Positions 13,290-64,000 of a stretch of 64,000 bases of DNA are shown here, one piece after another; within the stretch, counting starts at the first letter, position 1, and each line of letters starts with the position of its first letter. The stretch comes from Sycon ciliatum (lineage: Eukaryota > Porifera > Calcarea > Leucosolenida > Sycettidae). The position numbers were made by a program, and so were the translations under genes. The stretch is taken from assembly GCF_964019385.1 (NCBI RefSeq), contig NC_088655.1:17467690-17531689 (forward strand). Direction: 5' to 3'. The notes beneath the pieces are model-generated. The model saw only the letters and a program-made list of their open reading frames with translations, did not search any database and was not told the DNA's origin.

Positions 13290-16200
13290 TCGAAGCCAAT
13301 ACGTCGACAATTCTTTTAGCTGATTTTCCATTATTCTCCAATGTTGCAGCCGATTTTCGAACAGTCAGATGATTTTGCAGCCGAATCTGATGTGAAAAGC
13401 CGAATTTGGGGAAAGCCTTCTCCATCCAAAGCCCGAGGGACCCGTTCAAAGAAAGCCTGTGAATACCGTACTTGCTCGATTAGAGCCCTCTATCGAATAG
13501 TGCCCAGTCTCTGAAAGCCGGTGAAATAATAACGCCCTATCTTGAATAGTGCCCCCCCTCCCCCCGAGCCCCCGGCGATTGTAACCAAGCTGATGGGCAA
13601 GTTTGGTGTTCTTTTGCTAATGTACTTGTCAATCTCAATCCCCTGGTGATTACAGAATCAAAATCACAGATATTGTTACCGTTTCTGTAGAGTGATAATT
13701 TACAGTAAACAATAGGCGTTGTTTTACTTAGCCTTCTTCGTCTTTATGCTGGTCCTTGCTGGATGACATACATGTAAGTGTACCAGCATTGAAGAACTGG
13801 TGCCCTCTGTTGAATATTGCCTCATCTGTGATAGACTTTGGAAAAATATTGCCCCAGGGGCAATATTCGGGCGACAAAGGTAATCACTTGGTGAGTAAAT
13901 TTACAGCTCGGAAGGTGATGAGGGTGATAATGGTGGTGATGGTGAGTGCAATGAAGAGAAGAACGAAAGGTGGAAGACGACCTCCGGCGTGCTAAATAAA
14001 ACGGAGTCGCACCAACTTCTTCTTCACACGTTACTCGAAAAGTTCATTTCATTTGTTTCACCCATACACCGTAATTTTCCCTATTTGCGAACGGGTTTAC
14101 TCACAAAGCAAATCGAGTGAAACCAGAAAGTAATACCCGTAGCAATACTTGTCTTGCTAGTGAGTACTGTTCAACCTACATGTACATGCAGTTGTTTCAC
14201 ATACTTGAAGACGGTTGAAGTACAAGTACAATGTCATGTATTTAAAGGAAGAACAATGGACCAATGAACTATGAGTTAGGCTATCATTTCCACTAACACC
14301 ACCAGTTACTTGACAGTCAGCTCATGCGATAACTAAATCATTGCACGACACAGACCAACGGTACTGACATTCCACAACTAACTAACTGGCTTCCTTTTTT
14401 CGTGCTATAAATATTTGGCTCTCCATCCGAGTCCATCTTTATAAGTTTCTAATTCACATTATTTTCATGTTTCTTCTTGTATTCCCTATTGTGATGTATT
14501 TTCAAACTAATGATCGTCACAGGAAAACGTTTTAAAATGTTTCTCTTGACACTACGCCCCAGCCACGCGACATTCGCCTTCTTTCAATATTAATAAATGG
14601 TTTTCTTGGAAAGCTTGTGATAGCATCACTGGAATTATTGGGCACAAGTTCAGACGTGGTTTTCTCGCCCAGTCTAGAATTGGCCGTGCAAGATTGAGCT
14701 CTTTCGCCAATAGCAATGTAATGATTTAAGTGTTTGAGTAGAGTTTCAAACCGTCAGGGACCATGCAAGAATGTGAACAGACACATTTAAAACTTACAAG
14801 ACACACACACAAAGAAGGAAAAGCAAGAAATCAACACGACACCACAGTTAACAATATACAGCTACATACGAGTACGTGCAAACAATAAGAGGACGACAAA
14901 GGTGTTTTAACTCTGACTTTCACGCACTAAGTTTTACGGCAAAGTTCATGTTCTGACACCTTAGTCTAGCTTATTGGGATATGGTTAGGATGATATCACT
15001 TTTAAGGTGTTAAATGAAAGGTGATTAAACATCAAGTTGTTTTCTGACATACCTAGCACATTGTAGTCTGGCATTGGTCTTATGAGAGTGCGATTGCTCG
15101 ATGAGTGTAACTTAAACGTCGCTTGAATGAATGACAGCAGAGTGTTTAGTGGATATCAAATAATTATGGCATTGGCAGATAGCCAAATGCGCAAAACAAT
15201 GCAGGTCATATCATGCGCATTTACCGGCAAACATTAGACCAGGGACTTGACTAACATGACTCAAACGTATACGAAATTGCCGTTCACAACCATAAACCAC
15301 AGGAAACAGCTTTGGAACAAATATGAGGTGGGACAAATAACAATCAGACAGTTACTTTGAATGGGATTATGAGAACAATGCTACTTGAACAATGTTGTTT
15401 GTGTTGTATGTTCTTTAAAACTCCCCCATGAGTTTTCAGGCGCTAGAGATGTCCATCATAATTATGGTTATTGATTAACAAATTTCCAATTACTTCAGGA
15501 AAATGCCAACCCAGGTATTTAACATTCGGAATCAGACTCTTCAGAAGTATCCTCTTCATATCCATCGAGAACATACACTCCTTGGTCTTGTGAATCCTGC
15601 GATTTGCTGGTGCTACATTTACTGCCCAGTTGAGTTCGAAGTGCTTTTCTTATATTCTTCTTGGACCGTTGATGGTCAAACCACTTCCGTATGGTTTTGT
15701 CGTTACGGCAAAACTGTTAGCCAATTGGGCTAACCTTTGTGTAGATGGCCAAAGATCTCGAGCAAATTCATGCGTCAGAACAGCATACTGATCCTCTGAA
15801 AGTCGCTTGTGGGCTCGGCCACTTCCCGATTTGGTAGTACTTGTATCTCGTGGGGGACTGACGTTCCTGTCTTCGTCATCTAGCCATGCTTTGAATATAG
15901 GATACAACGAATTCAATTCAGCGTCACCAAATAAACGACTTCTAAACCTGTTGATAGGGTTCTTAGTGTTTAGAAATTTGGCACCATAGGATATGCAGAG
16001 TATCGATGCGAGTCTTCCTTGTGAAATGTTTGCCCGTTCTCTTGCTGTTTTGACCGATTCGCAAAACGCCTGATGATTATACCTCAATAAATCTGCCTTT
16101 GCCGTCGGAGAAGAGTGATCTAATGCAGTTCCTATCGGGCGATTTGGGGATGATCCGTAATCGCTTGTTGTCTGCACAAGGGAAGCGTTTTCGTTATGTT

Positions 16201-18080
16201 GCTGTTGTGATGGACCCAAGGCGAAAGAACAAGAAATCACAGGTAAACTAGAAGGTGTATCTGTTTGTGTTGTCAATAATCTTCTGTAGGCTGGTGGCGG
16301 ATATGGGAATGCTGCATAGCGCATTGTTCTCTCCGTATGAGAAATATACTCACGGCTTTGCTGTTGCGAGTTACTGACGGCCGAAGAAGAAGCATATCCC
16401 TGTGAAGCAGATGGTGTATCGTGCTGCGCTGAACTGCGGGCATTTGATCTACTTCTATGGTCTTGGGGGGCAGATGCGGTTGCTGTGTTATGCCGTGTTC
16501 TTGGAACAACGGAAACGTTTTCTGGGCAATGCTGCGACTGGTAAAGCTCCTGCTGTGGATTGAGGGAGGAATTATACGAGATGCCTTCTAGTCGCTCTTT
16601 TGCTCCATGATGCTGAGTAGGAGTGCTAGAAGCAATAGCAGGCTGTGCAAGGTAAGAGCCACTGCTAGAACCGCCATATGTCACTTGCTGCAAACCAGAC
16701 GAACACGATACTGATACGCAACCACTTGCAGATGTTAGCTCTGAACCAATTTTTACATGGGGCTCGACGGGTCTGGAAGAGAAGTAGTTTGTTTCGCTTT
16801 GAGTTGAGCGGGGTGCATTCAGCTAACGGGCAATTTCTGGATCGTCGTTGGCAACTCGCTTCTAATCCAATGCGACTTCTTCAGCAAAATCTAGCGGTTT
16901 GTCTTTGGAGCATTGTCGTGTCTCGATCTTGTCTACCACGGCAGTAAGCTCATCTCGCCAGGGATAAGAGTCCCAGGGACGTTGATCACAGTTCTGCTCC
17001 AGCTCTAGGCTATGCCTTTGTGGACAATTCGAAGACGTTGGTATCGCCATGGATGTGCTTGATGGCTGACTGGACTGGGATGTGGTATCAGTTACTAAAT
17101 CAGTGCTGGGCGGCGATGTCCTGCTCTTTGCTGTTGCAGTTGAAGACTTGTTGCAAGAAGGGCCACCGGTCCCAGTTCGTGGTGGATGGTCAGCCATATG
17201 AACGTCCCGAAAGATATCGGCTATTTGTTCTCTGCACCAGGAACACAATACCGATAGAAGACTAACTCTGCAGTGAGAGAGAATCTTAGAATTTGGTGTT
17301 CGAAGGGAAACAAAGACAGCGGATAGAAAGCAAGTTATGGGCTTGGAAATTGTCTACGGGCTTTGAAGACTGTATCCTGGACTACAGCGTTTTGAGCCTC
17401 CTCAGGAGAGATTAATTCACCGCTTCTGTTGCCAAAGTAAGTGCTGAAAAAATTCAATTACAAGTAAAAGGTGTTCGCTGTTAGTAACTATTGGTATTTG
17501 ATTAGGAATCTGCAATGTGATAAGATATCGCACTGAAACACATCGTCCTTGAAATTTCAGCTATTTGAGCATCCTGCAACGCGTCAGTATATTCAAGTGA
17601 TCGTTGTTCTCATATCGCTAAACCATTTAATCGTCTAAAACTGTTCATATTTGCACCACTCAGCATTTCCTTAGTAATTGTAGCATTCGAATTCACACTT
17701 GTCCAGCTTGACACACCGTCAGCTATCGTTACTTCTGTGTACTTGTTACCTACTATAGTCGATATACTTCATATAATTATTATACGTTTTAGGGTTCTCA
17801 AGTCTGGCATCTTTATTCACTTCTATGTGTACGAGGTCACCAGTTGCATAAGCTGTTTTAGGCGGCATATATCTTTGCGCTCTTGGTATCACATTCATTT
17901 CCGAGGGCCCACAAAGTCTGTTCTCACCTTCCAGGAGCAACTGTGACTCATTCTGCACTCTGGTGTTTCACGAGATGTTTGTCGGCCTGAAAACAGAGGA
18001 GATGGAGTGTTACAATATAACAAATGTACTTAATCCTACAGACTCAGAGGGTATAGAGGAGAGAATATATATATATATAT
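13290..18080 (-). repeat. Tandem POU-gene unit 1
   Basis: From the segment TGAATACCGTACTTGCTCG (13459), through TTTGCGAACGGGTTTACTCA and TGAAGACGGTTGAAGTACAA, to the gene's upstream region and the CAGACTCAGAGGGTA marker (18040), this unit is collinear with 19035-23580 and with the corresponding parts of units 3 and 4. It lacks the LINE, PLE and split-direct-repeat insertions of unit 3, so it preserves their empty sites near 13478, 14228, 14350 and 14868. Its left end is truncated compared with unit 2. Confidence 0.8.
15519..17197 (-). pseudogene. POU-homeobox-like gene, copy 1 (inactivated)
   Basis: Reading from the conserved start (residues MADH) the frame matches copies 2-4 but has two in-frame TAG codons, near 16829 and 16868. 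Both replace tryptophans that the other copies keep, in DWK and WLN contexts, so both are TGG to TAG changes. A single-base deletion near 15695 shifts the frame inside homeodomain recognition helix 3, just before the WF residues. If the shift is ignored, the tail up to a stop at 15519-15521 is still recognisable (helix 3 WFDHQR and the acidic end EEDTSEESDSE). The POU-specific-like segment is intact at the sequence level (FCESVKTAR, SYGAKF, YPIFKAWLDDED). I judge it a recent pseudogene. Confidence 0.8.
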
Positions 18081-20466: not shown

Positions 20467-21167
20467 GCCTAAAACTAACAAGAGACACACAAAGAAGGAA
20501 AAGCAAGAAAACAACAGGAAACCACAGGAAACAATGTACAGCTACATACCCGTACGTGCATACAATGAGAGGACGACAAAGGTGTTTTAACTCTGACTTT
20601 CACGCATGTGTTATGAGTAAGTTCATGTTTTTGACACTTAAGTCTAGCATTTTGGGATATGGTAGGAATACTGATGGTAAGATGATAAAATAAAGGTGGT
20701 TAAACATCAAGTTGTTTTCTGACATACCTAGCACATTGTAGTCTGGCGTTGGACTTAGGAGAGTGCGATCACTCGATGAGTGCAACTTAAAGATTGCCTG
20801 GATGAATGAGAGCAGAGTGTGTAGTGAATATCAAATATGGCACCGGCAGATAGCCAAGTACGCAAAACAACGCAGGTCATTTCAGGCGCATTTACCGGTA
20901 TACATTAGACCAGGGACTTGACTAACATGACTCAAACGTAGACGAAATTGCGGTTCACAACCATAAACAACATGAAACGGCATTGGAACAAATGTGACCT
21001 GGGACAAATAACAATCAGACAGTTGCTTTGAATGGGATTATGAGAACAATGCTACTTGAACAATGTTGTTTGTGTTGTATGTTCTTTTTAACTGCCCCGC
21101 ATGAGGTTTCAGGCGATAGAGATATCCATCATAATTATGGTTATTGATTAACAACTTTCCAATTACT

Positions 21168-22712
21168 TTAGAAATATGTCCGCGAAGGTATTTGGCATTC
21201 GGACTCAGACTCTTCAGAAGTATCCTCTTCATCTCCATCGAGATCTTCCACTCTTTGGTCTTGTGAATCTTGCGATTTGCTGGTGCCACATTCACCGCAG
21301 GGTTGAGTTCGGGGTGCTCTTCTAATATTCTCCTTGGACCGTTGATGGCTAAACCACTTCCGTATGGTTGCTCTCCTTAACGCTAAACTGTTAGCCAATT
21401 CGCCTAACTTTTGTGTAGATGGCCAATGATCTTGAGCAAACTCGCGTGTCAGAACAGCATACTGATCTTCTGAAAGTCGCTTGCAGGCTCGGCCACTTTG
21501 CAATTTGGTAGTACTTGTATCTCTTCGGGCACTAGCGTTCCTGTCTTCGTCATCTAGCCATGCTTTGAAAATTGGGTACAACGAAGTCATTTTATCGTCA
21601 GCAAATAAACGACTTCTAAACTTTTTGATAGAGTGCTCAGATTTTGGAAATTTGGCACCGTAGGATATGCAGAGTATAGATGCGAGTCTTTTTTGTGAAA
21701 TGTTTGCCCGTTCTCTTGCTGTTTTGACCAATTCGCAAAATGCCTTGTGATCATAACTCAATATATCTGTGTTTGTCGTCGGAGAACAGCGACCCATTGT
21801 ACTTGTAAGTGGGAGATATGGGGATGCTGCATGATGCCTTGTGCTCTCCGTATGAGAAACATACTCACGGTTTTGCTGTTGCGAGTTACTGACGGCCGAA
21901 GAAGAAGCATATCCCTGTAAAGCAGATGGTGTATCGTGCTGCGCTGAACTGCGGGCATTTGATCTACTTCTTTGGTCTTGGGAGCCAGATGCGGATGGTG
22001 TGTATTTACTTGTTCTCGGAACAAGGGAAACGTTCTCTGGGTAATGCTGTGACTGGTGATGCTCCTGCTGTGGATTGAGAGAGGAATTATGCGAAATGCC
22101 TTCTAGTCGCTCTTTTGCTCCATGATGCTGAGTAGGAGTGCTAGAAGCAATAGCAGGCTGAGCAAGGTAAGAGCCACTGCTAGAACTGGCATATGTCACT
22201 CGCTGCGAGCCAGACGAACGCGATACTGATATGGACCCACTTGCAGATGATAGCTCTGAACCAATAGTCACATCGGGTTCGACGGGTCTGGAAGTGAAGC
22301 AGTTTGTTTCCGTGTGAGTTTGCCGGGGCCATTTCAGCCAACTGGCAATTTGTCGATCGTCGCTGGCAACTCGCTTCCAATCCTCTGCGATTTCTTCAGC
22401 AACATCTAGCGGTTTGTCATTGGAGTATTGTCGTGTCTCGATCCTTTCCAGCACGGCCGTAAGGTCATTTCGCAGGGCATTCGAGTCCACGGGACGTAGA
22501 TCATAGTTAGGCTCAAGCTCTGGGCTAAGCCTTCGTGCACTATTCGATGACGTTGGTATCGCCATAGATGTGCTTGATGGATGATTGAAGTGTGATGGGG
22601 CATTGGTTACGATCTCACTGCTGGCCGACGATGTCCTACTCTTTGCTGTTGCAGTTGAAGACTTGATGCAAGGAGAGACACCGGTCTCAGTTCGTGGTGG
22701 TTGGTCAGCCAT
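21168..22712 (-). CDS. POU-homeobox-like transcription factor, copy 2 (514 aa)
   Basis: Likely a sequence-specific nuclear DNA-binding protein. Residues about 320-390 resemble a POU-specific domain: AFCELVKTARERANISQ aligns with the family's F-x-K...R...TQ, and LASILCISYGAKF with L..LG..YG..F. A 15-residue linker is followed by a 60-residue homeodomain (about 406-465) with L16, F20, W48, F49 and R53 in register, but the normally invariant N51 is His (WFSHQR). The N-terminal half is Ser/Gln/Thr-rich; the tail is acidic. Compared with copies 3 and 4 it lacks about 53 residues before the POU segment. Its stop has changed from TGA to TGC, adding nine residues. I chose the ATG at 22712 (MADQPP) because it is conserved in all copies; the frame stays open upstream to 22886, but copy 3 has a stop there. 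No intron is visible. The N51H change may weaken DNA binding. Confidence 0.75.
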   Translation of the reverse strand: MADQPPRTETGVSPCIKSSTATAKSRTSSASSEIVTNAPSHFNHPSSTSMAIPTSSNSARRLSPELEPNYDLRPVDSNALRNDLTAVLERIETRQYSNDKPLDVAEEIAEDWKRVASDDRQIASWLKWPRQTHTETNCFTSRPVEPDVTIGSELSSASGSISVSRSSGSQRVTYASSSSGSYLAQPAIASSTPTQHHGAKERLEGISHNSSLNPQQEHHQSQHYPENVSLVPRTSKYTPSASGSQDQRSRSNARSSAQHDTPSALQGYASSSAVSNSQQQNREYVSHTESTRHHAASPYLPLTSTMGRCSPTTNTDILSYDHKAFCELVKTARERANISQKRLASILCISYGAKFPKSEHSIKKFRSRLFADDKMTSLYPIFKAWLDDEDRNASARRDTSTTKLQSGRACKRLSEDQYAVLTREFAQDHWPSTQKLGELANSLALRRATIRKWFSHQRSKENIRRAPRTQPCGECGTSKSQDSQDQRVEDLDGDEEDTSEESESECQIPSRTYF

Positions 22713-24410
22713 ATGAACGTCCTGAAAGATATCCGTTATTTGTTCTCTGCACCCGCAACACAATACAAATAGATGGCAAATTGTGCAGTGGGAGAAATTT
22801 TTAGAATTTAGCGTTCGAAGAGAACCAACGACAACGGATAGAAAGACAGTTGATAAGCTAAGGGCTTGGAAGTTGTCTACGGGCAATGGAGACTGCAGCC
22901 TGGACTAACGCGTTTCGAGCTACCTCAGGAGGGAATATTTCACAACTTCTGTCGCCAAAGTTAGGGCTGAAAAAAATAAATTACAAGTGAAAGATATTCC
23001 CTGATAGTAACACTTGGAATGAAAGAATCACAGCTGCAATGTGATAAGATTTCTCACTGAATCATCGCGTCCTTGGAATTTCAGCTACTTGTGCATGCTG
23101 AAACGCGTCAGTACGTTCAAGTGATCGTTGTTTTAACATGTGCGTATCGCTAAATCATTTAATCGTCTCAAACTGTTCATATTAGCACCACTCACCCTTC
23201 CCTTAGTAATTATAGCGTTAGAATTCACACTTGTCCAGCTTGACACACCGTCAGCTAGCTATCGTTACTTCTATGTACTTGTTACCTACTATAGTCGGTA
23301 TACTTCATATATTATACGTTTTAGGTTTCTCAAGTCTGGAACCTTTATTCACTTCTCTGTGTACGAGGTCACCAATTGCTCATGCTGTTTTAGGCTGCAT
23401 ATCTGAGCGTTATTGGTATCACATTCATTTCCGAGGGCCCTCAAAGTCTTTTCTCACCTTCTAGGAGCAACGCTGACTCATTCTGCACTCTGGTGTTTCA
23501 CGAGGGGTTTGTCGCGCTGAAAACGGAGGAGTTGGAGTGTCACAATATAACAAATATGCCTTATGCTGCAGACTCAGAGGGTAAAGAGGAGAGACAAAGA
23601 GCAACGACGATAAAGAGCCACGGCTAGAACAGTATCTAACGACCATGAGGCGGGCGGAGTGAATGCCCCACGGGCCTCCCAAGTGTCCGCAAGCATGGTT
23701 TTTACGTGTGTGTTTTCCAACACCATACCAGAACAGTAATATAATTATATGTAGGACTCAGTGACCAGTCAAGGCCCCGTGACCAATCACGGTCCCCGTG
23801 ACCAGTCAAACAGTCACAAACCCCCCATGACCAGTCACAAATTAGTTTACCAGTCACAATGCCCCATGACCAGTCACAAATCACCATACATGTACATGTG
23901 TAAAGCACACAGTTCGTGACTGCTCGCAGGGTGCTTCGTACTGCAGGATTTGTTGTGGAAACTATAATTCCCTATGAGCGGTCACAGAATGCAGTTGTGA
24001 CCACTATAATTCCATGCGAACAGTTACATGCGGAATGTACAGTTGTGACCACTCTTTCTCTGTGAGTAGTCACAGGCAGAATATAGGTATTTCTGTATTA
24101 CAAGAGAGATTGGAGGCTTTGTCACAACTCTGAGTTTCACGTATTACTACGATCGTCAGGTAACTGATGGCTCCTAAACGGGCAGCCTGAACATAAGAGG
24201 GAGCAAGGTGGGAAATTCTGAGGGGTATCATAGGCGACGGGTATCATAGTGCAAGAGTCAGGTGCAGGCGTGAAGTTGCCAAGTCTTCAGACTTGGGGCT
24301 ATGCAGCAGCAGTTCCAGCGTGAATGACATAGAATAGAGCTGGAGACCACACATGCCCACACCATTACACACACATACACCCATACTCTCTCCCTTTTCT
24401 CACATACACT

Positions 24411-27882: not shown

Positions 27883-30800
27883 TTACAAATTACAAGGGCT
27901 GTTACTGAGAGGAGCATCATCATGGCTGATCATGGCGAGTCGGTTGTCTGAGCCAGTTGTGGTGCATAGATAGGGATAGAGGAGAACGACGAGAGCATCA
28001 TCATAGCGAGTCGACTGCCAGAGCCAGTTTGTGCTTCGCAGATGGCGATAAACATTAGTTTTGAATGCTTGTATTCCCTTGCTGTGGGGAGGCTGGGGCA
28101 GAAGAGCGGCGGGGAGGGAGTTCCAGTCACTAATACTGCAGTGTGGGAACGAGCGCTTTAATGCCAGCGGGACAGATGCAAGCAGCTGGTGTTCGAGCTG
28201 GTGGTCATGGCCAATGACGCTACCATGCTCGCTGCGAGTTCTGGGGCTGGGTGAGGGGAAATGGCGCGGTGGCAAAACAGAGAGTTGCTGCGGAGGGCCA
28301 GGCAGGTAATGCAGCTTGTATAGGCAGGCAAGCGAGGCAACAGTACGACGGATGGCCAGGCTAGGTAATAGTGCACCTGGACCAATGATTCGCAGAGCAC
28401 AGCGTTGGATATGATCCAGACGTTGCAGGTAGCTGGGCGGAGCACCTATCCAGATGAGGGGGCATACTCCATAACTGGTTGAACAAATGCCTTGTATACT
28501 GTGGTGCGGCCGGCTGGAGAGAGAATGTGCGCTGCACGGCGCAGGAAGCCCAGGCGTTGTTTGGCTCGAGTGGCAACCTTCCGGAGATGAGTGCTGAATG
28601 ACAGCTTCGAGTCAAAGGTCACTCCAAGTAAAGAGAGAGCCTTCTCCTCAAGGACAGGAGTGCCGCCGAAGACAATGCGAGGCAAATTGATGGGGGTTCT
28701 GCGGAGAGTGGCGGTCATGGCTTGGGACTTCGACGGTTCGAAGGAGATGCGCCATCTGCGGCCCCACTGATGCAAGCGATCAACAGAAGTCTGGAGGCTC
28801 AATGCTGCGTCGGCTGGGGATGTGTCGAGGGATATCAGGCTATACAAGGTAGTATCGTCGGCGTACGCCTCCAGGTGGGCTCCGGGTAACAGGGTCTCTG
28901 AGGCGTCGTTCACGTAAATCAGGAAGAGTCTAGGGCCGAGTATGCTGCCTTGGGGAACTCCTGCTGATATGGTATACAGCGATGAGGTTTGGCCGCCCAC
29001 CAAGCATTGAATGGACCGTCCACCTAGGTAGGAAGAGAGCCAGGTATGCAAGGGGCCGCCAATGCCAAGATGGCGGACTTTGTGGAGGAGGCCAGCATGG
29101 GACACACGGTCGAATGCTCCGGCAATATCCACGGCTAGAATACGTGCTGCACAGCCTCGTCCGACGGCTGTGATCCAGGCGTGGTGTAGAGCCTGTAGCG
29201 CATCTGAGGTCCCAAGGCGGCGACGAAACCCGAACTGGTGGGGTGTCAGGAGTTTGTAACGCTCAAGGTGATTCATGAGCTGACGATTGGTAACGCTCTC
29301 CATGATCTTAGAGATTATGCTCAGCAGTGAAACCGGACGATAATTCCTTAGGGCGGATCGTGAAGATCGCTTGTGGATTGGAACCACGCTGGCAGTCTTC
29401 CACATTTGTGGCTGGACTCCGTGCTGGAAGCAAAGAGCAAAGAGCTGACACAGTGGCTTGGCAAATTCTCTGGCGCATTCCTTCAAGACACGAGCGGAAA
29501 TACCGTCGGGTCCAGTCGCCTTTGAGGCATCCAGGCGAGCTAAAAGCCGGTGGACTGCATTGGGGCGAAAGTGGACTGTCGTTAGTGCAGGTGCGTCAGC
29601 GAATGCCGTGTCCGGTAAGTCCATCGTGGTAAAGTTGCGGCCTTGCACACTGCACTTGTGGGAAAAGAAACGTGCGAAAGCCTCCGATTTCTCATAGCTT
29701 GTGCCCCTCTCGCAACCTTCACTATCAACGAGCAGGGGAATGTCAGTGTTCCGACCCTCGCCACAAGCGCAGTTTAGCTTCGTCCACCATTCCTTCTCCT
29801 TCAGGGACCCAGTCGACAAGTTATGTCTGAGGCTGTTCTCTTTGGAAACTCTAGATCTAGCGGGGACTGCGATAGCATTGTTTACAGAACGGGTAAACTC
29901 ATGTTTCAGTGCAAAATCATGAGGGTGCTTCCTCCAAGTGCGCCAGCGTTTGTCCTTCTCCTTCATGGCGGCTGCACACTCAGGTGTCCACCATTTCGGA
30001 TCCGTTGACTTCACTGTCAGTGTCTTGGACGGAACGAACTGGGAAACGGCTTTCATGATTGTGGCAGTAACGTGCTCACACGAAGTTTCTGGGTTGGCAG
30101 TAATGACGGTTGACCAATCAACCTGGCGGAAAAAGGATCGGAGGCGGTTCCAGTCTGCCTTTTCATAGCGCCAGACAGTTCGTTGCACCGCCGCTTCATG
30201 GGTAGGAAGAACACCTGTGAAGTCCGAAAGAGTTACAGCGTGGTCAGATCGACCAATAGGGGACATTATCTGCGTGGTCACTGGAGAGTTGAATGTGGAC
30301 ATCACCAGGTCGAGTGTGTTATCCCCGCGAGTAGGACTCTGAACGTGCTGCGTGAGAAAGTGGGCTGTGCATGTGTCTTCGAGGGCTTCCCCCGCAGGTG
30401 TGGTCTTCGAGCTATGGAGCCAATTGCGGTTATGCACATTAAAATCACCGGCGAGTATGAGGTTGGCACCAAGTGCACAAGCAGAGGGAAGGATGTCATC
30501 AAGATGGTTCATGAGCGTAAGGTCACTGGGCCCCGTCGAACCTGGCCTGTAAGCAGCGCCCAAGACTATCTTTTGTCCAGGGGACAATTGAATGGATAGC
30601 CAAATGAGTTCGTGATGTGGAGAAAATAACTCATCAATTACCATGGCTGGGAGTGTAGATCTGATCCATACCACCACTCCACCACCGCGTGCTGTTCGAT
30701 CCAGCCGGAAGGTGGTGTAGCCAGGGAATGTAGAGTCGGATGGTGGGACCGTTTCAGAGGAAAACTATGTTTTCGTCACTACTTCTATGTCGGGATTATG

Positions 30801-43341: not shown

Positions 43342-43364
43342 AGATACAGTTCAGGGCACGCTGA

Positions 43365-46400: not shown

Positions 46401-48077
46401 TTATTCGGGCCCAGACTCTTCTGAAGAATCCTCTTCATCTCCATCAAGATATTCTACTCTTTCGTCTTGTGAATCTTGCGGTTTGCTGGTGCCACATTCA
46501 CTGCCTGGTTGGGTTCGGGGTGCTCTTCTAATATTTGTCCTGGTCCTCTGATTTCTAAACCAGTTACGTATGGTTTCCGTCCGTACGGCAAAACTGTTAG
46601 CCAATTCGGCTAACTTTCGTTGAGATGGCCAATGATCTCGAGTAAACTCATCCTTCAAAACAGCATACTGATCCTCTGAAAGTTGCTTGGAGGCTCGGCC
46701 ACTTCGCAATTTGGTAGTACTTGTATCTCTTGTGGCACTAGTGTTCCTGGCTACGTCATCTAGCAATGCTTTGAATATTGGGTACAACGATTTCATTGTA
46801 GCGTCACAATATATACGTCCTCTAAAATTTTTGATAGAGTGCTTAGTGTTTGGAAATTTGGCACCATAGGATATGCAGAGTATCGATGCGAGTCTTTCTT
46901 GTGAAATGTTTGCCCGTTCTCTTGCTGTTTTGATCAATTCGCAGAATGCCTCATGATCATACCTCAATAAATCTGCCTTTGCCTTCAGAGAAGAGTGATC
47001 CATTTTACTTGGTAGTGGGAGATTTGGGGATGATTCGTAATCGCTTGTTGTCTGCCCAAGCGAAGCGTTTTCGCTGGTTTGCTTTTGTGATTTACTCAAG
47101 GCTAAAGAAGAAGCAATCCCAGGTAAACTAGAAGGCGTATCTCTTTGTGTTGTCAATAATCTTCTATAGGCTGGTTGGGGATATGGGGATGCTGCATGAC
47201 GCCCTGTGCTCTCCGTATGAGAAACATACTCACGGTTTTGCTGTTGCGAGTTACTGACAGCCGAAGAAGAAGCATATCCCTGTAAAGCAGATGGTGTATC
47301 GTGCTGCGCTGAACTGCGGGCATTCGATCTACTTCTATGGTCTTGGGAGCCAGATGCGGATGCTGTGTAATTCCTTGTTCTCGGAACAAGGGAAACGGTA
47401 TTTGAGTAATGCTGCCACCGGTGATGCTCCTGCTGTGGATTGAGGGAGGAATGATACGAGATGCCTTCTAGTCGCTCTTTTGCTCCATGATGCTGAGTAG
47501 GAGTGCTAGAAGCAATAGCAGGCTGTGTAAGGTAAGAGCCACTGCTAGAACTGGCAAATGCCACTTGCTGCAAACCAGACGAACGAGATACAGATACGGA
47601 CCCACTTGCAGATGATAGCTCCGAACCAATGGTCACATCGGGTTCGACGGGTCTGGAAGTGAAGTAGTTTGTTTTGGTTTGAGCTGGCCGGGGCCCATTC
47701 AGCCAACGGGCAATTTCTTGATCGTCGTTGGCAACTTGCTTCCAATCCAATGCGATTTCCTCAGCAAAATCTAGCGGTATGTCTTTGGAGTATTGTCGTG
47801 TCTCGATCATTTCCAGCACGGCAGTAAGCTCCTTTCGCAGGGGATACGAATCCCAGGGACGTTGATCACAGTTGTGCTCCAGTTCCAGGCTAAGCTTTGA
47901 TGGACAATTCGATGACGTTGGTATCTCCATAGATGTGCTTGATGGGTGATTGAAGTGTGATGTGGCATCTGGTATGATCTCAGTGCTGGGCGACGATGTC
48001 CTGCTCTTTGCTGTTGAAGTTGAAGACTTGATCCAAGAAGGGACACCTGTCGCCGTTCGTGGTGAATGGTCAGCCAT
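46401..48077 (-). CDS. POU-homeobox-like transcription factor, copy 3 (558 aa)
   Basis: An uninterrupted, intronless frame from the conserved ATG (MADHSP). It has a Ser/Thr/Gln-rich N-terminal 370 residues, a POU-specific-like segment at about 373-443 (AFCELIKTARERANISQ, SYGAKF, YPIFKALLDD), a short linker, a homeodomain at about 459-518 with L16, F20, W48, F49, N51 and R53 (helix 3 IRNWFRNQR), and a 40-residue tail ending in an acidic run (DGDEEDSSEES). The helix-2 Gln of POU-specific domains is kept (ISQ); the second contact Gln is not. A stop just upstream of the conserved region supports the chosen start. Its 3' flank carries the split-repeat retrotransposon, so distal 3' regulation may differ from its sisters. 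Predicted nuclear DNA-binding regulator; targets unknown. Confidence 0.8.
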   Translation of the reverse strand: MADHSPRTATGVPSWIKSSTSTAKSRTSSPSTEIIPDATSHFNHPSSTSMEIPTSSNCPSKLSLELEHNCDQRPWDSYPLRKELTAVLEMIETRQYSKDIPLDFAEEIALDWKQVANDDQEIARWLNGPRPAQTKTNYFTSRPVEPDVTIGSELSSASGSVSVSRSSGLQQVAFASSSSGSYLTQPAIASSTPTQHHGAKERLEGISYHSSLNPQQEHHRWQHYSNTVSLVPRTRNYTASASGSQDHRSRSNARSSAQHDTPSALQGYASSSAVSNSQQQNREYVSHTESTGRHAASPYPQPAYRRLLTTQRDTPSSLPGIASSLALSKSQKQTSENASLGQTTSDYESSPNLPLPSKMDHSSLKAKADLLRYDHEAFCELIKTARERANISQERLASILCISYGAKFPNTKHSIKNFRGRIYCDATMKSLYPIFKALLDDVARNTSATRDTSTTKLRSGRASKQLSEDQYAVLKDEFTRDHWPSQRKLAELANSFAVRTETIRNWFRNQRTRTNIRRAPRTQPGSECGTSKPQDSQDERVEYLDGDEEDSSEESGPE

Positions 48078-49169
48078 ATGAACGTCCTGAAAGATATTCG
48101 TTATTTGTTCTCTGCACCCGCAACACAATACAAATAGAAGACAAATTGTGCAGTGAGAGAAAAATTTGGAATTCGGTGCTCGAAGAGAACCAACTACAAC
48201 GGACAGAAAGACAGTTGATCAGCTATAGGTTTGAAAGTTGTCTACTGGCATTGAAGACTGCAGCCTGGACTAACGCGTTTTGAGCTTCCTCAGGAGAGAA
48301 TATTTCACAGCTTCTTTTGCCAAAGTAACGGCTAAAGAAAAATAATTACAATTGAAAGGGGATTGCTGTTAGTAACATTTGGCAGGAAAGAATCACAACT
48401 GGAATGTGATAAGATCTCGCACTGAATCCCCTCGTCCTTGGAAATTCAGCTATTTGAGCAACCTGAAAGGCGTCAGTGCATTCAAGGGATCGTTCTCCTC
48501 ACATGTGCGTTTCACTCAATCATTTAAATTTTCTACAGCTGTTCATATTTGCACGACTCAGCCGTATGTCAGTAATTACAGCATTAGCATTCACACTTAT
48601 CCAGCTTGATACACCATCAGGTACCGGCACTTCTGTGCATTTGTTGCCTTCTGCAGTCGCAATAAATCGATAACGTTTTCTCAAGTCTGGCACACTTTTT
48701 TCAGTTCTTCTACATGTCCGAGGTCATCAGTGGCCCATGCTCTTTTATCCACCTCTTTGCGCTATTGGCCACACATTCATTTCTGAAGGTCCTCAATGTC
48801 TGGTCTCAACTTTCAGGAGCAACACTGACTCATTCTGCACTCTGGTGTTCCACAAGGTGTTTGTCGCGCTGGAAACGAAGAAGAAGGGAGTGTAAACATG
48901 TACCTAATGCCGTAGAGTCAGAGGGTAAAGAGGAGAGACGAAGAGCAACGACGATGAAGAACCCCAGCTAGAACGGTATCTAACGACCATGCGGCGGGTG
49001 GAGTGAATGAACCACGATAAGTCTGAACTGGCACCCTTATTTTCAGTACATATAAGATATACTACATATTTGATCAACCTTGTAATGTAGAATTCCACAT
49101 GTGTGTATACTGCTCTGTACTTTTGTGCATTGAGCACTCTACCTTTAACTGCCTTCAACGACCTTGTCT

Positions 49170-51110: not shown

Positions 51111-51554
51111 TCTTTATGCTTGAGGACATAAATGTGCAGAGCGTGTAGTTGATATCAAACTCAAACTCAAATGGGGAAAGTCAAAGCAAATCAAATATGG
51201 CACCGGCCAATAGCCAAGTGCGCAAAACAATGCAGGTCATATCATGCGCATTAACCGGTATACAGTAAATCAGGGACTTGACTAACATGACTCAAACGTA
51301 TACGAAATTGCCGTTCACAACCATTAACAACATGAAACGGCATTCGAACAAATATTACCTGGGACAAATAACAATCAGACAGTTACTTAGAATGGGATTA
51401 TGGGAACAATCCTACTTGAACAATGTTGTTTGTGTTGTATGTTTATTGAAACTCCCCCGCATGAGTTTTCAGGCGAGAAAGGTGTCCACCATAATTATGG
51501 TTATTGATTAACATTTTTCCAATTACTTTAGGAAGATGTCCGCGAAAGTATTTG

Positions 51555-53231
51555 TCATTCGGAGTCCGACTCTTCAGAAGTATCCTCTTCATCTCCATCG
51601 AGATCTTCCACTCTTTGGTCTTGTGAATCTTGCAATTTGCTGGTGCCACGTTGACTGCCCGGTTGAGTTCGGGGTGCTCTTCTAATATTGTTCTTGGACC
51701 GTTGATTTTCAAACCAATTCCGTATGGTTGTTGTCGTTACGGCAAAACTGTTAGCCAACTCGGCTAACCTTTGTGTAGACGGCCAATGATCTTGAGCAAA
51801 CTCATCCGTCAGAACAGCATACTGATCCTCTGAAAGTTTCTTGCAGGCTCGGGCACTTCGCAATTTGGTAGTACTTGTATCTCTTTTGGCACTAGCGTTC
51901 CTGGCTTCGTCATCTAGCCATGCTTTGAATATTGGGTACAACGAATTCATTGTAGCGTCACAATATACAAGTCTCCTAAAATTTCTGATAGAGTGCCCAC
52001 TGTTTGGAAATTTGGCACCATAGGATATGCAGAGTATCGATGCGAGTCTTTCTTGTGAAATGTTTGCCCGTTCTCTTGCTGTTTTGACCAATTTGCAGAA
52101 CGCTTTATGATCATACCTCAATAAAGCTGCCTTTGCCTTCAGAGAAAAGTCATCCAATGCAGTTGGTATCGGGCGATTTGGGGATGATCCGTAATCGCTT
52201 GTTGTCTGCACAAGCGAAGCGTTCTCGCTATTTTGCTGTTGTGATGTACTCAAGGCTAAAGAAGAAGCAATCCCAGGTAAACTAGAAGTTGAATCTGTTA
52301 GTGTGGTCAATAATCTTCTGTAGGCTGGTGGCGGATATGGGGATGCTTCATAGCGCCTTTTTCTCTCCGTGTGAGAAATATACTCACGGTTTTGCTGTTG
52401 CGAGTTACTGACGGCCGAAGAAGAAGCATATCCCTGTAAAGCAGATGGTGTATCGTGCTGCGCTGAACTGCGGGCATTTGATCTACTTCTATGGTCTTGG
52501 GAGCCAGATGCGGATGCTGTGTTATGCCTTGTTCTCGGAACAAGGGAAACGTTCTCTGGGTAATGCTGCGACTGGTGATGCTCCTGCTGTGGATTGAGAG
52601 AGGAATTATACGAGATGCCTTCTAGTCGCTCTTTTGCTCCATGATGCTGAGTAGGAGTGCTAGAAGCAATAGCAGGCTGTGCAAGGTAAGAGCCACTGCT
52701 AGAACTGGCATATGTCACTCGCTGCGAGCCAGACGAAGGCGATACTGATATGGACCCACTCGCAGATGATAGCTCTGAACCAATAGTCACATCGGGTTCG
52801 ACGGGTCTGGAAGTGAAGCACTTTGTTTCCGTCCGAGTTCGCCGGGGCCATTTCAGCCAACCGGCAATTTCTTGATCGTCGTTGGCAACTCGCTTCCAAT
52901 CCTCTGCGATTTCTTCAGCAACATCTAGCGGTTTGTCATTGGAGTATTGTCGTGTCTCGATCCTTTCCAGCACGGGCGTAATGTCATTTCGCAGGGCATA
53001 CGAGTCCACGGGACGTAGATCATAGTTAGGCTCCAGCTCTGGGCTAAGCCTTCGTGCACTATTCGATGACGTTGGTATCCCCATAGATGTGCTTGATGGA
53101 TGATTGAAGTGTGATGGGGCATTGGTTACGATATCACTGCTGGCCGACGATGTCCTGCTCTTTGCTGTTGCAGTTGAAGACTTGATGCAAGGAGAGACAC
53201 GGGTCTCAGTTCGTGGTGGTTCGTCAGCCAT
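51555..53231 (-). CDS. POU-homeobox-like transcription factor, copy 4 (558 aa)
   Basis: The most canonical copy. From the ATG of MADEPP: a Ser/Gln-rich N-terminus; a POU-specific-like domain at about 373-443 (AFCKLVKTARERANISQERL, LCISYGAKF, YPIFKAWLDDEA), which aligns residue for residue with the family except for a two-residue insertion after the YG..F turn; a 15-residue linker; and a 60-residue homeodomain at 459-518 with L16, F20, W48, F49, N51 and R53 all present (IRNWFENQR). The tail ends in DGDEEDTSEESDSE. Residue 50 is Glu where typical POU factors have Cys, so specificity is expected to differ. The frame is open upstream to 53405, which would add a hydrophobic, cysteine-rich leader; this is not preserved in copy 3. 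It lies next to the unit 4/5 boundary, where a retrotransposon sits. Confidence 0.8.
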   Translation of the reverse strand: MADEPPRTETRVSPCIKSSTATAKSRTSSASSDIVTNAPSHFNHPSSTSMGIPTSSNSARRLSPELEPNYDLRPVDSYALRNDITPVLERIETRQYSNDKPLDVAEEIAEDWKRVANDDQEIAGWLKWPRRTRTETKCFTSRPVEPDVTIGSELSSASGSISVSPSSGSQRVTYASSSSGSYLAQPAIASSTPTQHHGAKERLEGISYNSSLNPQQEHHQSQHYPENVSLVPRTRHNTASASGSQDHRSRSNARSSAQHDTPSALQGYASSSAVSNSQQQNREYISHTERKRRYEASPYPPPAYRRLLTTLTDSTSSLPGIASSLALSTSQQQNSENASLVQTTSDYGSSPNRPIPTALDDFSLKAKAALLRYDHKAFCKLVKTARERANISQERLASILCISYGAKFPNSGHSIRNFRRLVYCDATMNSLYPIFKAWLDDEARNASAKRDTSTTKLRSARACKKLSEDQYAVLTDEFAQDHWPSTQRLAELANSFAVTTTTIRNWFENQRSKNNIRRAPRTQPGSQRGTSKLQDSQDQRVEDLDGDEEDTSEESDSE

Positions 53232-54072
53232 ATGAACGTCCTGAAAGATATCCGTTATTTGTTCTCTGGACCCGCAACACAATACAAATAGATGGCAAAT
53301 TGTGCAGTGGGAGAAAAATTTAGAATTTGGCGTTCGAAGAGAACCAACGACAACGGATAGGAAGACAGTTGATAAGCTACGGGCTTGGAAGTTGTCTACG
53401 GGCATTGAAGACTGTATCCTGGACTAACGCGTTTTGAGCTACCTCAGGAGGGAATATTTCACAACTTCTGTCGCCGAAGTTAGGGCTGAAAAAAATAATT
53501 TACAAGTGAAAGATGTTCCCTGTTAGTAACACTTGGAATGAAAGAATCATAGCTGCAAAGTGATAAGATTTCTCACTGAATCATCGCGTCCTTGGAATTT
53601 CAGCTAGTTATGCATGCTGAAACGCGTCAGTACGTTCAAGTGATCGTTGTTTTAACATGTGCGTATCGCTAAATCATTTAATCGTCTCAAACTGTTCATA
53701 TTTGCACCACTCAGCCTTCCCTTGGTAATTACAGCATTCGAATTCGCACTTGTCCAGCTTGACACACCGTCAGCTATCGTTACTTCTGTGTACTTGTTAC
53801 CTACTATTGTCGATATACTTCATATATTATACGTTTTAGGTTTCTCAAGTCTGGCACCTTTATTCACTTCTATGTGTGCGAGGTCACCAATTGCCCAAGC
53901 TGTTTAAGGCTGCATATCTGAGCGTTATTGGTATCACATTCATTTCCGACGGCCATCAAAGTCTTTTCTCACCTTCCAGGAGCAACGCTGACTCATTCTG
54001 CGCTCTGGTGTTACACGAGGGGTTTGTCGCGCTGAAAATGGAGGAGAGGGAGTGTCACAATATAACAAATAT

Positions 54073-57299: not shown

Positions 57300-58690
57300 G
57301 CTCCGAGGGAGAGCTGCCCCTGCATTTTGCAAGCCTAGCTGTAAATATACAAAGCTCCAAGGGGAAATGCCCCTGCATTTTGCAAACATAGCTGTACACA
57401 TCCAATGCTCCCAGGGGAGCTGCCCCTGCATTTTGCAAACATAGCTGTAAACTTCCAAGGCTCCAAGGGGAGCTGCCCCTGCATTTTGTAAGCATAGCTA
57501 TAAACATCCAAAGCTCAGGGGAGCTACCCCTGCGTTTTGCAAACCTAGCTGTAAACCAACAAAGCTCAAAGGGAAGCTGTCCCTGCATTTTGCACACATA
57601 GTTGTAAGCATCCAAGGCTCCAAGGGGGGCTGACCCTGCATTTGCAAACATAGCTGTAAACATCCAAAGCTCCCAGGGGAGCTGCCCCTGCATTTTGCGA
57701 CCACACCTGTAAACATCCAACTTCAAAAGCTCCCAGAGGAGCTGCCCCTGCAGTTTGCAAGCATAGCTGTAAACATCCAAAGCTCCAAAGGGGAGCTACC
57801 CCTGCGTTTTGCAAACCTAGCAGTAAACCTACGAAGCTCAAAGGGGAGCTGCCCCTGCATTTTGCAAACATAGTTGTAAACGTAGAACTAGAAGGCTCCA
57901 AGGGGAGCTGCCCCTGTATTTGCAAATATAGCTGTAAACATCCAAAGTTCCAAGGGGAGCTGCCCCTGCATTTGGCAAACCTAGCTGTAAACCTACAACG
58001 CTCTGAGGGGAGCTACCCCTGCATTTTGCAAACCTGGCTGTAAACATCCAAGCCCCAAGGGGAACTGCCCCTGCATTTAGCCAACATAGTGGTAAACATC
58101 CAAAGTTTCAAGGAGTGCTGCCCCTGCATTTTGTCCGCACAGCTGTAACCTAGTTTTAAAAGCTCCAAGGGGAGCTGCCCCTGCATTTTGCAAACATAGC
58201 TGTAAACATCCAAAGCTCCAAGGGGAGCTGTCCCTGCATTTTGTCGCGTAGCTGTCAACTAGCTAAAGCTCCAAAAAGAGCTACCCCTGCATTTTGCAAA
58301 CGTGGCCGTAAACATACCCAGCTCCAAGCCCTTTTTTTTGTTTCTTCCTCGCAAACATAGCTGTAAACATACCACGCACAAAGGGGAGCTGCCCCTGCTT
58401 TCTGCAAGCATCGCTGTAAATGATTACACACAAGGCTCGGAGGGGAGTTGCCCCTGCTTTTTGCAAACATTACTGTACCAGGCCACAAGGGGAGCTGCCC
58501 CTGAATCTTGCAAACATAGCTGTGAACATACAAAGCTCAAAGGGGAGCGGCCCCTGCGTTTTGCAAACATAGCCGCAGCGCTGGGCATAACGCCACCCAG
58601 GCGAGGCGCGCTGCCCCTGCCTTGACCAATGCCGCCGCAAACAACACGCGCAAAGGGGCGCTGCCCCTGCATTTGCTCGCATAGCCGCCG
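57300..58690. repeat. Hairpin-bearing minisatellite, about 57-bp units
   Basis: The unit AGGGGAGCTGCCCCTGCATT plus TTGCAAACATAGCTGTAAAC and ATCCAAAGCTCC is repeated about 24 times. Each unit contains the near-palindrome AGGGGAGCTGCCCCT. The conserved frames read through it are a consequence of the repeat. Confidence 0.9.
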
Positions 58691-58900
58691 TATCAGACCG
58701 CCGGGTCAGCCGCCATATCAGACCGCTGGGTCAGCCGCCATATCAGACCGCTGGGTCAGCCGCCATATCAGACCGCTGGGTCAGCCGCCGCCGCCATATC
58801 AGACCGCTGGGTCAGCCGCCATATCAGACCGCCGGGTCAGTTGCCATATCGGACCGCTGGGTCAACTGCCATGTCGGGCCGCCGGGTCAACCGCCGCATG
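58684..58900. repeat. 24-bp minisatellite
   Basis: The unit CGCCATATCAGACCGCTGGG TCAG is repeated about eight times with a few CCGCCG expansions, directly next to the hairpin array. Confidence 0.9.
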
Positions 58901-62004: not shown

Positions 62005-62765
62005 GTCCCGTATCTGTGACTAAAAAGGCTCTACAGGATTGTACATAACAGCTGGCCACAATATTTGCTGGCTCCCGTATCTGTCCCGTACCGTACCATC
62101 AAACACAACTGGCCACAATATTCGTCGTATTATGTATACGACTTCCTGATGTAGAGGGAGGATTGGAAAGAAATAGGGAGACGAGGAGGAAATGAAATTT
62201 GAATAGACGCCGAATAAGTGATAGGATGCGCCAGCAAAAACATACTTTGGAAGAGAGATCCCGTCGTCTCCAAAATAAGCGTTAACGGGCGATTCAGCGC
62301 CGGTCACAGGAAACTTCGGAAGATAGATCCCGTTGACTCCAGAACGCCCGTGATCGGCAGAGTCAGCGCCGGTCCCAGGAAACGTCAAGGCAGACATCCC
62401 GTCGAGTCCAGAACGCCCTTTATCGGCAGAGTCTGCGCCGGTCCCAGGGAACGTCAGGACAGACATCCGGTCGACTCCAGAACGCCCATGATGGGCAGAG
62501 TCAGCGCCGATCCCAGGAAACGTCAGGACAAACATTCCGTCAACTCCAGAACGCACGTGATCGGCAGAGTCAACGCCGGTCCCGTAGCTATGCAGAACAC
62601 GTTACTTCAGTAACTCATTGAAACGTTTTTGCAATACAATGATGTAGGTAATCAAAGGAAAGAAAACATATCCATCAGTTCTAACAACATGCACGATGAG
62701 CTAGGCAACAAAAGCATAGCGTAGGGCCCTGAGCTTGCAAGCTCTCTCGTCGTGTCCGTTCCGTT
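62005..62765 (-). mobile_element. LINE 5' region, second copy
   Basis: Nearly identical to 36276-36966, including AACATACTTTGGAAGAGAGA, the 69-bp tandem units (about six here) and CTTGCAAGCTCTCTCGTCGT. It ends at the same host position (CGGTTGAAGTACAAG) as the insertion in unit 3, so units 3 and 5 share this insertion by descent. Confidence 0.75.
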
Positions 62766-63840
62766 CGGTTGAAGTACAAGTACATGTAGTTAAATGAAGA
62801 AAAATGGACTATAATTTCTACTAACACCACCTGTTACTTGACAGTCAGCTCATGCGATAACATAATCAATGCACGCCACAGACCAAGGGTACTTACATTC
62901 CACAACTAACTCACAATCGAGCTGGGGTTTTTTCTTCCTATAAATCCTTGGCTCTCCATACGAGTCGATCTTTACAAGTTTCTCATTCATACCAGTATTA
63001 TTTTCATGTTTATTCTAGAATTCCCTATTGTGATGTATTTTCGAACTAATAATCTTTCCATGAAAACGTTCTGGGAAACTTTTATACCTTACTCATAGCG
63101 TTGTTTAAAAAAAAGGTGAGTGTTTATTGACAATACGTTCCAGCCACGCAACATTCCAGTTCATTCAAAATTACTAAGTACATTCCTTGCAAAGCCTGGG
63201 ATATCAACACGAAAAATGTTAGGTGCAAGTTCAGACGTGGTTTTCTCGCCCAGTTTAGACTTGGCCGTGTAAGATTGAGCTCTCTTGCCGAATGCAATGT
63301 AATGATTTAAGTGTTGGAGCAGAGTTTCAAAACGTCAGGGACCATAGCAGAATTTAACCAGACACATATAAACTAATAAGACATAAATAAAGAAGCTGGC
63401 GTTGGACTAATGAGAGTGCGATCGCTCTTTGAGTGCAAGTTTAAAATTGCTTGGATGAATGAGAGCAGAGTGTGTTTTGGATATCAAATATAGCACCGGC
63501 CAATAGGCAAGTTCTAAAAACAATACAGGTCATATCATGCGCATTTACCAGTTTACATTAGACCACGGATTTGACTAAAATGACTCAAATGTAAACGAAA
63601 TCATAAACAACATGAAACGGCATTCGAATAAATGTGAGATAGGACAAAGAACAATCAGACAGTTACTTCGAAGTACTTAGAATGGGATTACGGGAACAAT
63701 CCCACTTGAACAATGTTGTTTGTGTTGTATTTATTAAAACTCCCAGCATGATTTTTCAAGCGATAGAGATGTCTATTACAAACATGGTGATTGAATAAAA
63801 TATTTCTAATACTTCAGGAAAATGCCCGCCCAGGCATTTG

Positions 63841-64000
63841 TTATTCGGGCTCAGACTCTTCTGAAGTATCCTCTTCATCTCCATCAAGATATTCCATTCT
63901 TTCGTCTTGTGAATCTTGCGGTTTGCTGGTGCCACATTCACTGCCTGGTTGAGTTCGGGGTGCTCTTCGAATATTCGTCCTGTCCCTTTGATTTATAAAC
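63841..64000 (-). CDS. POU-homeobox-like gene, copy 5 (3' end only)
   Basis: The last 52 or so codons run into the window edge. They cover the end of homeodomain helix 3 (FINQRDRTNIRR, so N51 and R53 are present), the APRTQPGSECGTSKPQDSQD segment and the acidic tail (YLDGDEEDTSEESEPE) with a TAA stop. It is closest to copy 3 by eye (SKPQDSQDER, EYLDGDEED). Whether the rest is intact cannot be seen. Confidence 0.75.
   Translation of the reverse strand, partial: FINQRDRTNIRRAPRTQPGSECGTSKPQDSQDERMEYLDGDEEDTSEESEPE

What the first reader, a model, noticed from the sequence alone, without database searches (positions are those of the whole stretch)
13290..64000. Tandem array of at least five intronless POU-homeobox-like genes, all minus strand
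Each unit of about 5 kb carries one gene encoding a POU-specific-like domain, a short linker and a 60-residue homeodomain with L16, F20, W48, F49 and R53 in register. POU genes are usually single or low-copy developmental regulators, so a local tandem expansion with divergent N-termini is unusual. Three copies are full length, one is a pseudogene and one is cut by the window edge. This is the best candidate for something undescribed here.
Basis: partly seen in the sequence, partly recalled or inferred. Interest (0 to 1): 0.88.

Follow-up and report, generated by a model that had tools for sequence, protein, structure and literature searches.

The report
Diversifying POU-homeobox gene array in sponge
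A chromosome of what is probably a sponge carries dozens of tandem copies of a divergent POU-homeobox gene whose DNA-reading residues differ from copy to copy more than the rest of the DNA-binding domain, as if new DNA-recognition specificities keep evolving.

Summary
The window (C14:17467690-17531689 of a 538-Mb animal genome, probably a calcareous sponge) holds four whole-length copies, one of them broken, and a 3' remnant of an array at C14 17.36-17.90 Mb, all minus strand. Of 38 copies retrieved, 24 are open through the homeodomain recognition helix. A divergent plus-strand array (about 30% identity) lies 0.3 Mb further on. The proteins are POU-S + homeodomain, of no resolvable POU family. 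Framework and backbone contacts are conserved; variation concentrates on base-contact residues: POU-S 44/45/49 (omega 4.5, p 2e-9 versus 1) and HD 47/50/54 (3.9, p 7e-6); a scan of all sites also ranks POU-S 43-45 and HD 50 highest. The second array repeats the POU-S pattern. Nine higher-scoring POU sequences of the same genome keep Q44 (9 of 9), S/T45 and R49 (8 of 9 each). With a free synonymous rate only array-A POU-S survives (p 0.02). Best reading: a DNA-recognition repertoire diversified by duplication, re-pairing of halves and selection on base contacts. Expression, binding and driver are untested.

The parts
51555..53231 (-). copy c4 CDS, 558 aa, open: S/T/Q-rich N-terminus, POU-S (aa 373-444), 16-aa linker, homeodomain (aa 461-518), acidic tail
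46401..48077 (-). copy c3 CDS, 558 aa, open
21168..22712 (-). copy c2 CDS, 514 aa, open (159-nt in-frame gap before the POU-S domain)
15519..17197 (-). copy c1, broken: in-frame TAG stops and a 1-nt deletion at homeodomain helix 3
63841..64000 (-). copy c5, 3' remnant (end of homeodomain and tail)
51187..54070 (-). conserved repeat unit around c4; same block at 15157-18025, 20830-23558, 46029-48893 and 63483-64000
53480..53980 (-). candidate intron in the 5' untranslated region: conserved AAG|GTGAG and T-rich CAG signals upstream of the ATG; inferred only
51678..51851 (-). c4 homeodomain; positions 5, 7, 47, 50, 51 and 54 differ among copies
51900..52115 (-). c4 POU-S domain; Oct1-numbered 43, 44, 45, 48 and 49 differ among copies

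Best explanation
This is a tandem repertoire of divergent POU transcription factors. Each copy keeps the framework and backbone contacts of the POU-specific domain and the homeodomain (sequence evidence) but tends to carry its own set of base-contact residues in the recognition helices. Duplication plus conversion-like exchange homogenises a tract of the N-terminal half and re-pairs POU-S with homeodomain variants, and substitutions at base contacts spread the copies over different DNA sequences (site pattern and re-pairing seen in the sequences; different DNA targets inferred). The most likely driver is pressure to keep up with rapidly changing DNA, such as repeats or mobile elements, or with target conflict in germ line or early embryo (inferred, about one in three).
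For: Array size, strand and census. Site pattern in window and database paralogs: HD50 has 8 residue types in 9 rows; HD 47/50/54 more variable than random positions, permutation p 0.0003 over all HD positions and 0.001 over non-core positions. Codon ML on c2-c4: omega 2.71 at six base-contact codons against 0.69 elsewhere (p 0.003; versus 1 p 0.039); with c1 added 4.06 (versus 1 p 4e-4); nine backbone-contact codons 0.20 (p 0.09 against the rest; 0.19 and p 0.02 with c1). Twenty open copies: POU-S 44/45/49 omega 4.5 (p 2e-9 versus 1), HD 47/50/54 3.9 (p 7e-6), rest 0.65 and 0.84; all 24 open copies: 5.1 and 3.5. Second array, 9 copies: POU-S 6.6 (p 2.5e-6), top two sites 45 and 44. Control in the same genome: of nine higher-scoring POU-S, 9 keep Q44, 8 keep S/T45 and 8 keep R49. 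Re-pairing: A17.571/A17.578 HD 100% identical with POU-S 82.6%; A17.490/A17.726 POU-S 95.2% with HD 78.2%; 17 of 20 copies have distinct contact combinations.
Against: With the synonymous rate free, the array-A homeodomain set 47/50/54 is not significant (beta/alpha 1.30, p 0.79; with 51 added 1.68, p 0.29; with 5, 7 and 51 added 2.83, p 0.053), and array B is not significant (POU-S p 0.72, five sites p 0.23, HD ratio 1.0); array-A POU-S survives (p 0.021; five sites p 0.0017). Single-site tests with free alpha: 3 of 69 POU-S, 2 of 58 HD and 1 of 169 N-terminal sites at p<0.05, HD50 not among them. N51, normally near-invariant (recalled), is replaced in 8 of 17 distinct homeodomains, so some copies may bind DNA poorly. 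The POU-S register at 43-44 depends on a 2-residue insertion; without site 44 c2-c4 give 2.27, p 0.12 versus 1 (3.64, p 0.003 with c1), and with the other register 2.07, p 0.14 (3.09, p 0.006). The control genes were picked for high POU score, which itself rewards these residues. No expression or binding data.
Confidence: 0.6

Rival explanations
1. DNA binding has been relaxed or lost: the folds are kept for protein-protein contacts or as competitors of canonical POU factors, and base-contact residues drift.
For: Overall dN/dS near 1 (0.82, 1.00, 0.82 for c2/c3, c2/c4, c3/c4); N51 replaced in 8 of 17 distinct homeodomains; free-alpha tests weak in the homeodomain; 13 of 38 copies with an ORF under 460 aa, and a helix-3 deletion shared by c1 and the copies at 17.400 and 17.430 Mb.
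Against: Backbone contacts are conserved (POU-S 20 and 27 beta/alpha 0, p 0.008; nine backbone codons omega 0.2); with the synonymous rate fixed, contact sites change faster than neutral; the same POU-S sites recur in array B.
Confidence: 0.24
2. The array is a decaying cluster of pseudogenes with neutral variation.
For: 13 of 38 copies have an ORF under 460 aa from the aligned start; dN/dS near 1.
Against: 24 of 38 copies are open through the recognition helix; frame-breaking gaps are frequent in flanks but absent from the CDS of c2-c4; 16 of 69 POU-S and 7 of 58 HD sites have omega<1 at p<0.05 with fixed alpha, 6 and 4 with free alpha.
Confidence: 0.07
3. The frames belong to a transposable element.
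For: A short interspersed repeat lies near several unit ends; mobile elements sit between copies.
Confidence: 0.03
4. Ordinary tandem expansion with subfunctionalised developmental regulators; contact-site diversity is a passive by-product of age.
For: Other POU genes of this genome also form a tandem cluster (C1:63.63-63.84 Mb).
Against: In that cluster 5 of 5 sampled copies keep Q44 and S45 and 4 of 5 keep R49, though they were picked by POU score.
Confidence: 0.06

Closest known systems
POU class transcription factors (POU1-POU6; PMC4245813, passages read)
   Same: POU-S, short linker, homeodomain in that order; profile and phmmer matches across both halves
   Different: no resolvable family, long stem branch, 2-residue insertion before POU-S helix 3, canonical Q44/T45/R49 and C50 not kept, dozens of tandem copies
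Mammalian ETCHbox genes: LEUTX, TPRX/Obox arrays (PMC8208926, abstract and sections 11 and 15 read)
   Same: large tandem homeobox arrays with many pseudogenes, fast evolution, positive selection and gene conversion
   Different: PRD class, not POU; selected sites are spread over the protein with few in the recognition helix, and conversion of TPRX1/TPRX2 homogenises the homeobox
PRDM9 (PMC2779102, passages read); KRAB zinc-finger proteins (recalled)
   Same: positive selection focused on base-contacting residues, with homogenisation between repeats
   Different: zinc-finger arrays inside one protein; here whole POU-homeobox genes
Odysseus OdsH (PMC10917504, passages read)
   Same: fast-evolving homeobox duplicate
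   Different: a single gene; in the passages read, the positively selected sites lie outside its homeodomain

Membership tests
POU class (bipartite POU-S + homeodomain) | POU-S domain N-terminal to a homeodomain, short linker | tested here: met
   phmmer of c4 and profile A1 align to POU structures across both halves; P0125 and array-B L049 and L051 pass both Pfam cut-offs, L055 misses the POU one by 0.9 bit; 10 array-A loci are over the POU cut-off in the genome-wide search
POU class (bipartite POU-S + homeodomain) | Pfam POU cut-off passed by the window's own copies | tested here: inconclusive
   0 of 4 testable copies pass at 27 bits (c2 26.0, c4 21.6, c1 16.1, c3 none); array relatives such as P0125 (72% identical to c4) pass
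One of the named families POU1-POU6 | groups with one family | tested here: inconclusive
Canonical octamer-binding POU factor | Q44, T45, R49 in POU-S and N51 in the homeodomain | tested here: not met
   variable among copies; mostly kept by nine other POU sequences of the same genome (Q44 9, S/T45 8, R49 8 of 9)
ETCHbox-like homeobox array | PRD-class homeodomain derived from CRX | tested here: not met
   best matches among solved structures are POU proteins spanning both halves; no CRX comparison was made
Transposable-element protein | dispersed copies in a mobile context | tested here: not met
   83 of 85 scored pieces lie in two arrays on C14; terminal repeats were not searched unit by unit

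The most novel reading that the evidence does not exclude
A POU-based DNA-recognition repertoire: two facing arrays of POU-homeobox genes that mutate and re-pair the base-reading residues of their two DNA-binding halves, keeping pace with fast-changing genomic DNA as PRDM9 and KRAB zinc fingers do, in a non-bilaterian animal.
Probability: 0.33. Interest if true: 0.93.

Novelty: new variant of a known kind. Interest (0 to 1): 0.8.

Why it matters
[quoted passage not shown] A large array in which just those residues diversify, with the same POU-S sites varying in a second array and largely fixed in other POU genes of the same genome, would show that a bipartite developmental DNA-binding domain can become a fast-evolving recognition repertoire, as known from zinc fingers. 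Each copy predicts its own DNA motif, so the idea is directly testable in vitro.

Tried and rejected
Considered and rejected: transposable-element origin, pure pseudogene array, a named POU family, and an alternative C-terminal frame after helix 3 (interrupted by stops near helix 3 in c2 and c4). Led nowhere: phage collection with c4, viral contigs with P0001, GTDB contigs and plasmids with the LINE (no relative, apart from one weak reverse-transcriptase match on a plasmid); octamer ATGCAAAT is not enriched (1 match, 4.5 expected); AF2 models are weak (single sequence mean pLDDT 58.9; ten-row alignment 56.0 with most of the homeodomain at 80-86 and POU-S near 50); fold search never ran. Literature searches (listings seen, one search returned mostly irrelevant word matches) listed no paper that I recognised as describing such a POU array; that covers only the top rows of searches in the held open-access library.

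Confidence was lowered from 0.62 to 0.60 for the weaker control.

Rows dropped before counts: one search used 20 of 38 copies (18 dropped: broken, frameshifted, or missed by its length and motif filter); one search added 4 of those 18, giving all 24 open through HD 57 (three of the added copies stop at HD 58). Array B: 9 of 10 fetched loci used (L058 broken); one array-B match and further POU matches there were not fetched. Small array-A fragments listed were not fetched, so copy counts are lower bounds. The control used 9 of the 15 POU matches that one search lists outside C14. The N-terminal scan took every second of 337 columns.
Full report
WHAT WAS CHECKED. The window has POU-homeobox-like frames at the stated places, all on the minus strand. 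The unit conserved between copies is about 2.9 kb (51187-54070 and its counterparts) and reaches beyond the CDS on both sides. Homeodomain matches pass Pfam's cut-off in c2, c3 and c4; POU matches fall short in the window copies, but c4 matches Oct4 over both domains, profile A1 matches POU structures over both halves, and relatives from the same arrays pass the POU cut-off. c1 is broken, and c5 is a 3' remnant even with the DNA beyond the window in hand.

WHERE IT IS. The window is C14:17467690-17531689 of a genome of 538,412,230 bases in 313 contigs. The source is most likely a calcareous sponge: among the 120 listed relatives of the window's LINE reverse transcriptase, the rows with informative names are P0104, named Sycon ciliatum by NCBI, and three with scpid identifiers, which I recall as Sycon's. 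This is inference. A protein search of the genome gave 85 scored pieces (71 of 162 candidates scored): 72 in one block at C14 17.36-17.90 Mb, all minus strand; one intact copy on C3 (88%); 11 divergent pieces (29-39% identity) at C14 18.22-18.61 Mb, all plus strand; and one partial match at C14:16811035. Four of them match copies of this array almost exactly (P0001 99.8%, P0002 100%, P0003 99.7%, P0127 99.3%), so they come from the same or a very close genome; P0126 is 97.9% identical to c2; P0124 (89.8% at best) and P0125 (76.2% at best) have no close counterpart among the copies fetched.

CENSUS. I retrieved 38 array-A copies whose start region was found (37 on C14, one on C3); 36 have ATG at the aligned start; 25 have an ORF of at least 460 aa, one of these with the helix-3 frameshift, leaving 24 of 38 open through homeodomain residue 57. 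One search lists further fragments that were not fetched.

CODING UNDER SELECTION. Among c1-c4 the CDS has two gaps (159 nt in c2, 1 nt in broken c1) while upstream and downstream flanks have many, mostly not divisible by three. Overall dN/dS is high (0.82, 1.00, 0.82), which a plain pseudogene also shows, but an intact 558-codon frame is unlikely under neutrality, and 16 of 69 POU-S and 7 of 58 homeodomain sites have omega below 1 at p<0.05 (6 and 4 with a free synonymous rate). Tracts near 52500 and 52700 are 1-5% diverged between copies whose neighbouring tracts are mostly 9-20% diverged, which looks like gene conversion; no formal conversion test was run.

WHERE THE VARIATION SITS. Positions were taken from the literature: HD 47, 50 and 54 as primary specificity positions, with the N-terminal arm contributing (PMC11006913, passages); Oct4 Gln44, Thr45 and Arg49 in POU-S, and Asn143 and Gln146, which I read as HD 51 and 54, as DNA-binding residues (PMC4720428, passages). 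I had already seen that HD50 varies before fixing these sets. In nine rows HD50 shows eight residue types; the set 47/50/54 is more variable than random sets (p 0.0003 all positions, 0.001 non-core, the core list being recalled). My own codon-model script on c2-c4 gives omega 2.71 at the six sites against 0.69 elsewhere, and 0.20 at nine backbone contacts (p 0.09 against the rest); 1 of 60 random six-codon sets did as well as the contact set. With 20 open copies and separate trees for the two halves, the sites with omega above 1 at p<0.05 were POU-S 43, 44, 45, 49, 65, 48, 54 and HD 50, 7, 41, 5, 51; HD 47 and 54 on their own were not (p 0.38, 0.18). 24 copies gave much the same list. The divergent array B, 9 copies, has POU-S 45 and 44 as its top two sites (omega 6.6 for the three-site set, p 2.5e-6); its homeodomain set has omega 2.67 (p 0.068), and its top homeodomain sites are 21, 55, 57, 4, 5 and 47, with residue 50 constant.

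RESULTS AGAINST. These tests fix the synonymous rate at the domain average. When it floats per set, array-A POU-S 44/45/49 keeps beta/alpha 4.8 (p 0.021; five sites p 0.0017), but HD 47/50/54 falls to 1.30 (p 0.79), HD 47/50/51/54 to 1.68 (p 0.29), HD 5/7/47/50/51/54 to 2.83 (p 0.053), and array B loses significance (POU-S p 0.72, five sites p 0.23, HD ratio 1.0). Few synonymous sites exist in such sets, so this may be lack of power, but it is not excluded that local mutation or conversion raises both rates. Site-wise tests with a free synonymous rate leave 3 of 69, 2 of 58 and 1 of 169 sites at p<0.05 in POU-S (44, 43, 54), HD (7, 51) and N-terminus. Equating block residue 40 with Gln44 rests on the insertion being placed before it; the ten-row AF2 model agrees (helix from model residue 68) but at pLDDT below 50, and the single-sequence model starts that helix three residues later.

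CONTROL IN THE SAME GENOME. A genome-wide POU search gave 38 matches: 15 outside C14, including canonical-looking genes on C1, C9 and C13 and a tandem cluster at C1:63.63-63.84 Mb. In the nine of these 15 that I fetched, 9 keep Q44, 8 keep S or T at 45 (C13 has A) and 8 keep R49 (C1:63.840 has Q); three carry a homeodomain in the stretch, with WFCN, WYCN, WFCN. They were picked by high POU score, which itself rewards these residues, so this is supporting, not independent, evidence that tandem duplication alone does not produce the pattern.

HALVES ARE RE-PAIRED. Some copies share an identical homeodomain with a different POU-S (A17.571 and A17.578: 100% and 82.6%), others the reverse (A17.490 and A17.726: 95.2% POU-S, 78.2% HD); 17 of 20 copies have distinct combinations of nine contact-region residues.

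INTERPRETATION. Seen in the sequences: array, census, POU architecture, concentration of amino-acid change at base contacts with conserved framework and backbone contacts, re-pairing of halves. Inferred: that the copies bind different DNA sequences, that they are expressed, and that conflict with fast-changing DNA drives it. The nearest parallels are PRDM9, where selection falls on codons responsible for DNA-binding specificity together with concerted evolution (PMC2779102, passages), and mammalian ETCHbox arrays, where selected sites are spread over the protein (PMC8208926, sections 11 and 15). The main live rival is relaxed or lost DNA binding, supported by replacement of N51 in 8 of 17 distinct homeodomains.

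Noticed in passing
G000 C14:18.22-18.64 Mb, + strand (L049-L058): Second, divergent POU-homeobox array facing the first; 9 of 10 fetched copies are open across both domains.
   Followed up: partly
G000 C1:63.63-63.84 Mb (L059-L063): Tandem cluster of canonical-looking POU-S genes; by eye no homeodomain in the roughly 120 residues downstream in the five stretches fetched.
   Followed up: partly
G000 C14:16.54-16.58 Mb: Four partial POU matches (profile about 8-49) that may be a further cluster.
   Followed up: no
G000 C9:18887542-18888492(-) and 19078703-19079653(+): Mirror-image pair of POU loci with identical scores, each with two POU-S matches: a possible large inverted duplication.
   Followed up: no
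28446-32256 (-): Non-LTR retrotransposon with a zinc-knuckle-like ORF1 and an endonuclease-reverse transcriptase ORF2; a 97% identical protein is on a 589,518-bp ENA contig.
   Followed up: partly
42579-44715 (-): Fragments that look DIRS-like (recalled resemblance), frameshifted; the reverse-transcriptase match is weak and below its cut-off.
   Followed up: no
41153-41567 and 42009-42400: Two arrays of the 22-bp unit AGCTCAAAGTAGAGCTGCTGTT.
   Followed up: no
57300-58573 and 58683-58897: 53-bp and 25-bp tandem arrays.
   Followed up: no
9580-9850 and 10130-10400: 271-nt inverted repeat, 98% complementary.
   Followed up: no
36275-36866 and 62005-62665: 69-bp minisatellite at two places, with a 300-nt flank 98% alike.
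   Followed up: no
G000 C14:17398719-17400600 (copy A17.400) and database protein P0003: P0003 is 99.7% identical to this copy but reads through where the copy has an in-frame stop, so breakage seems polymorphic; both, with c1 and A17.430/P0002, share the helix-3 deletion.
   Followed up: partly
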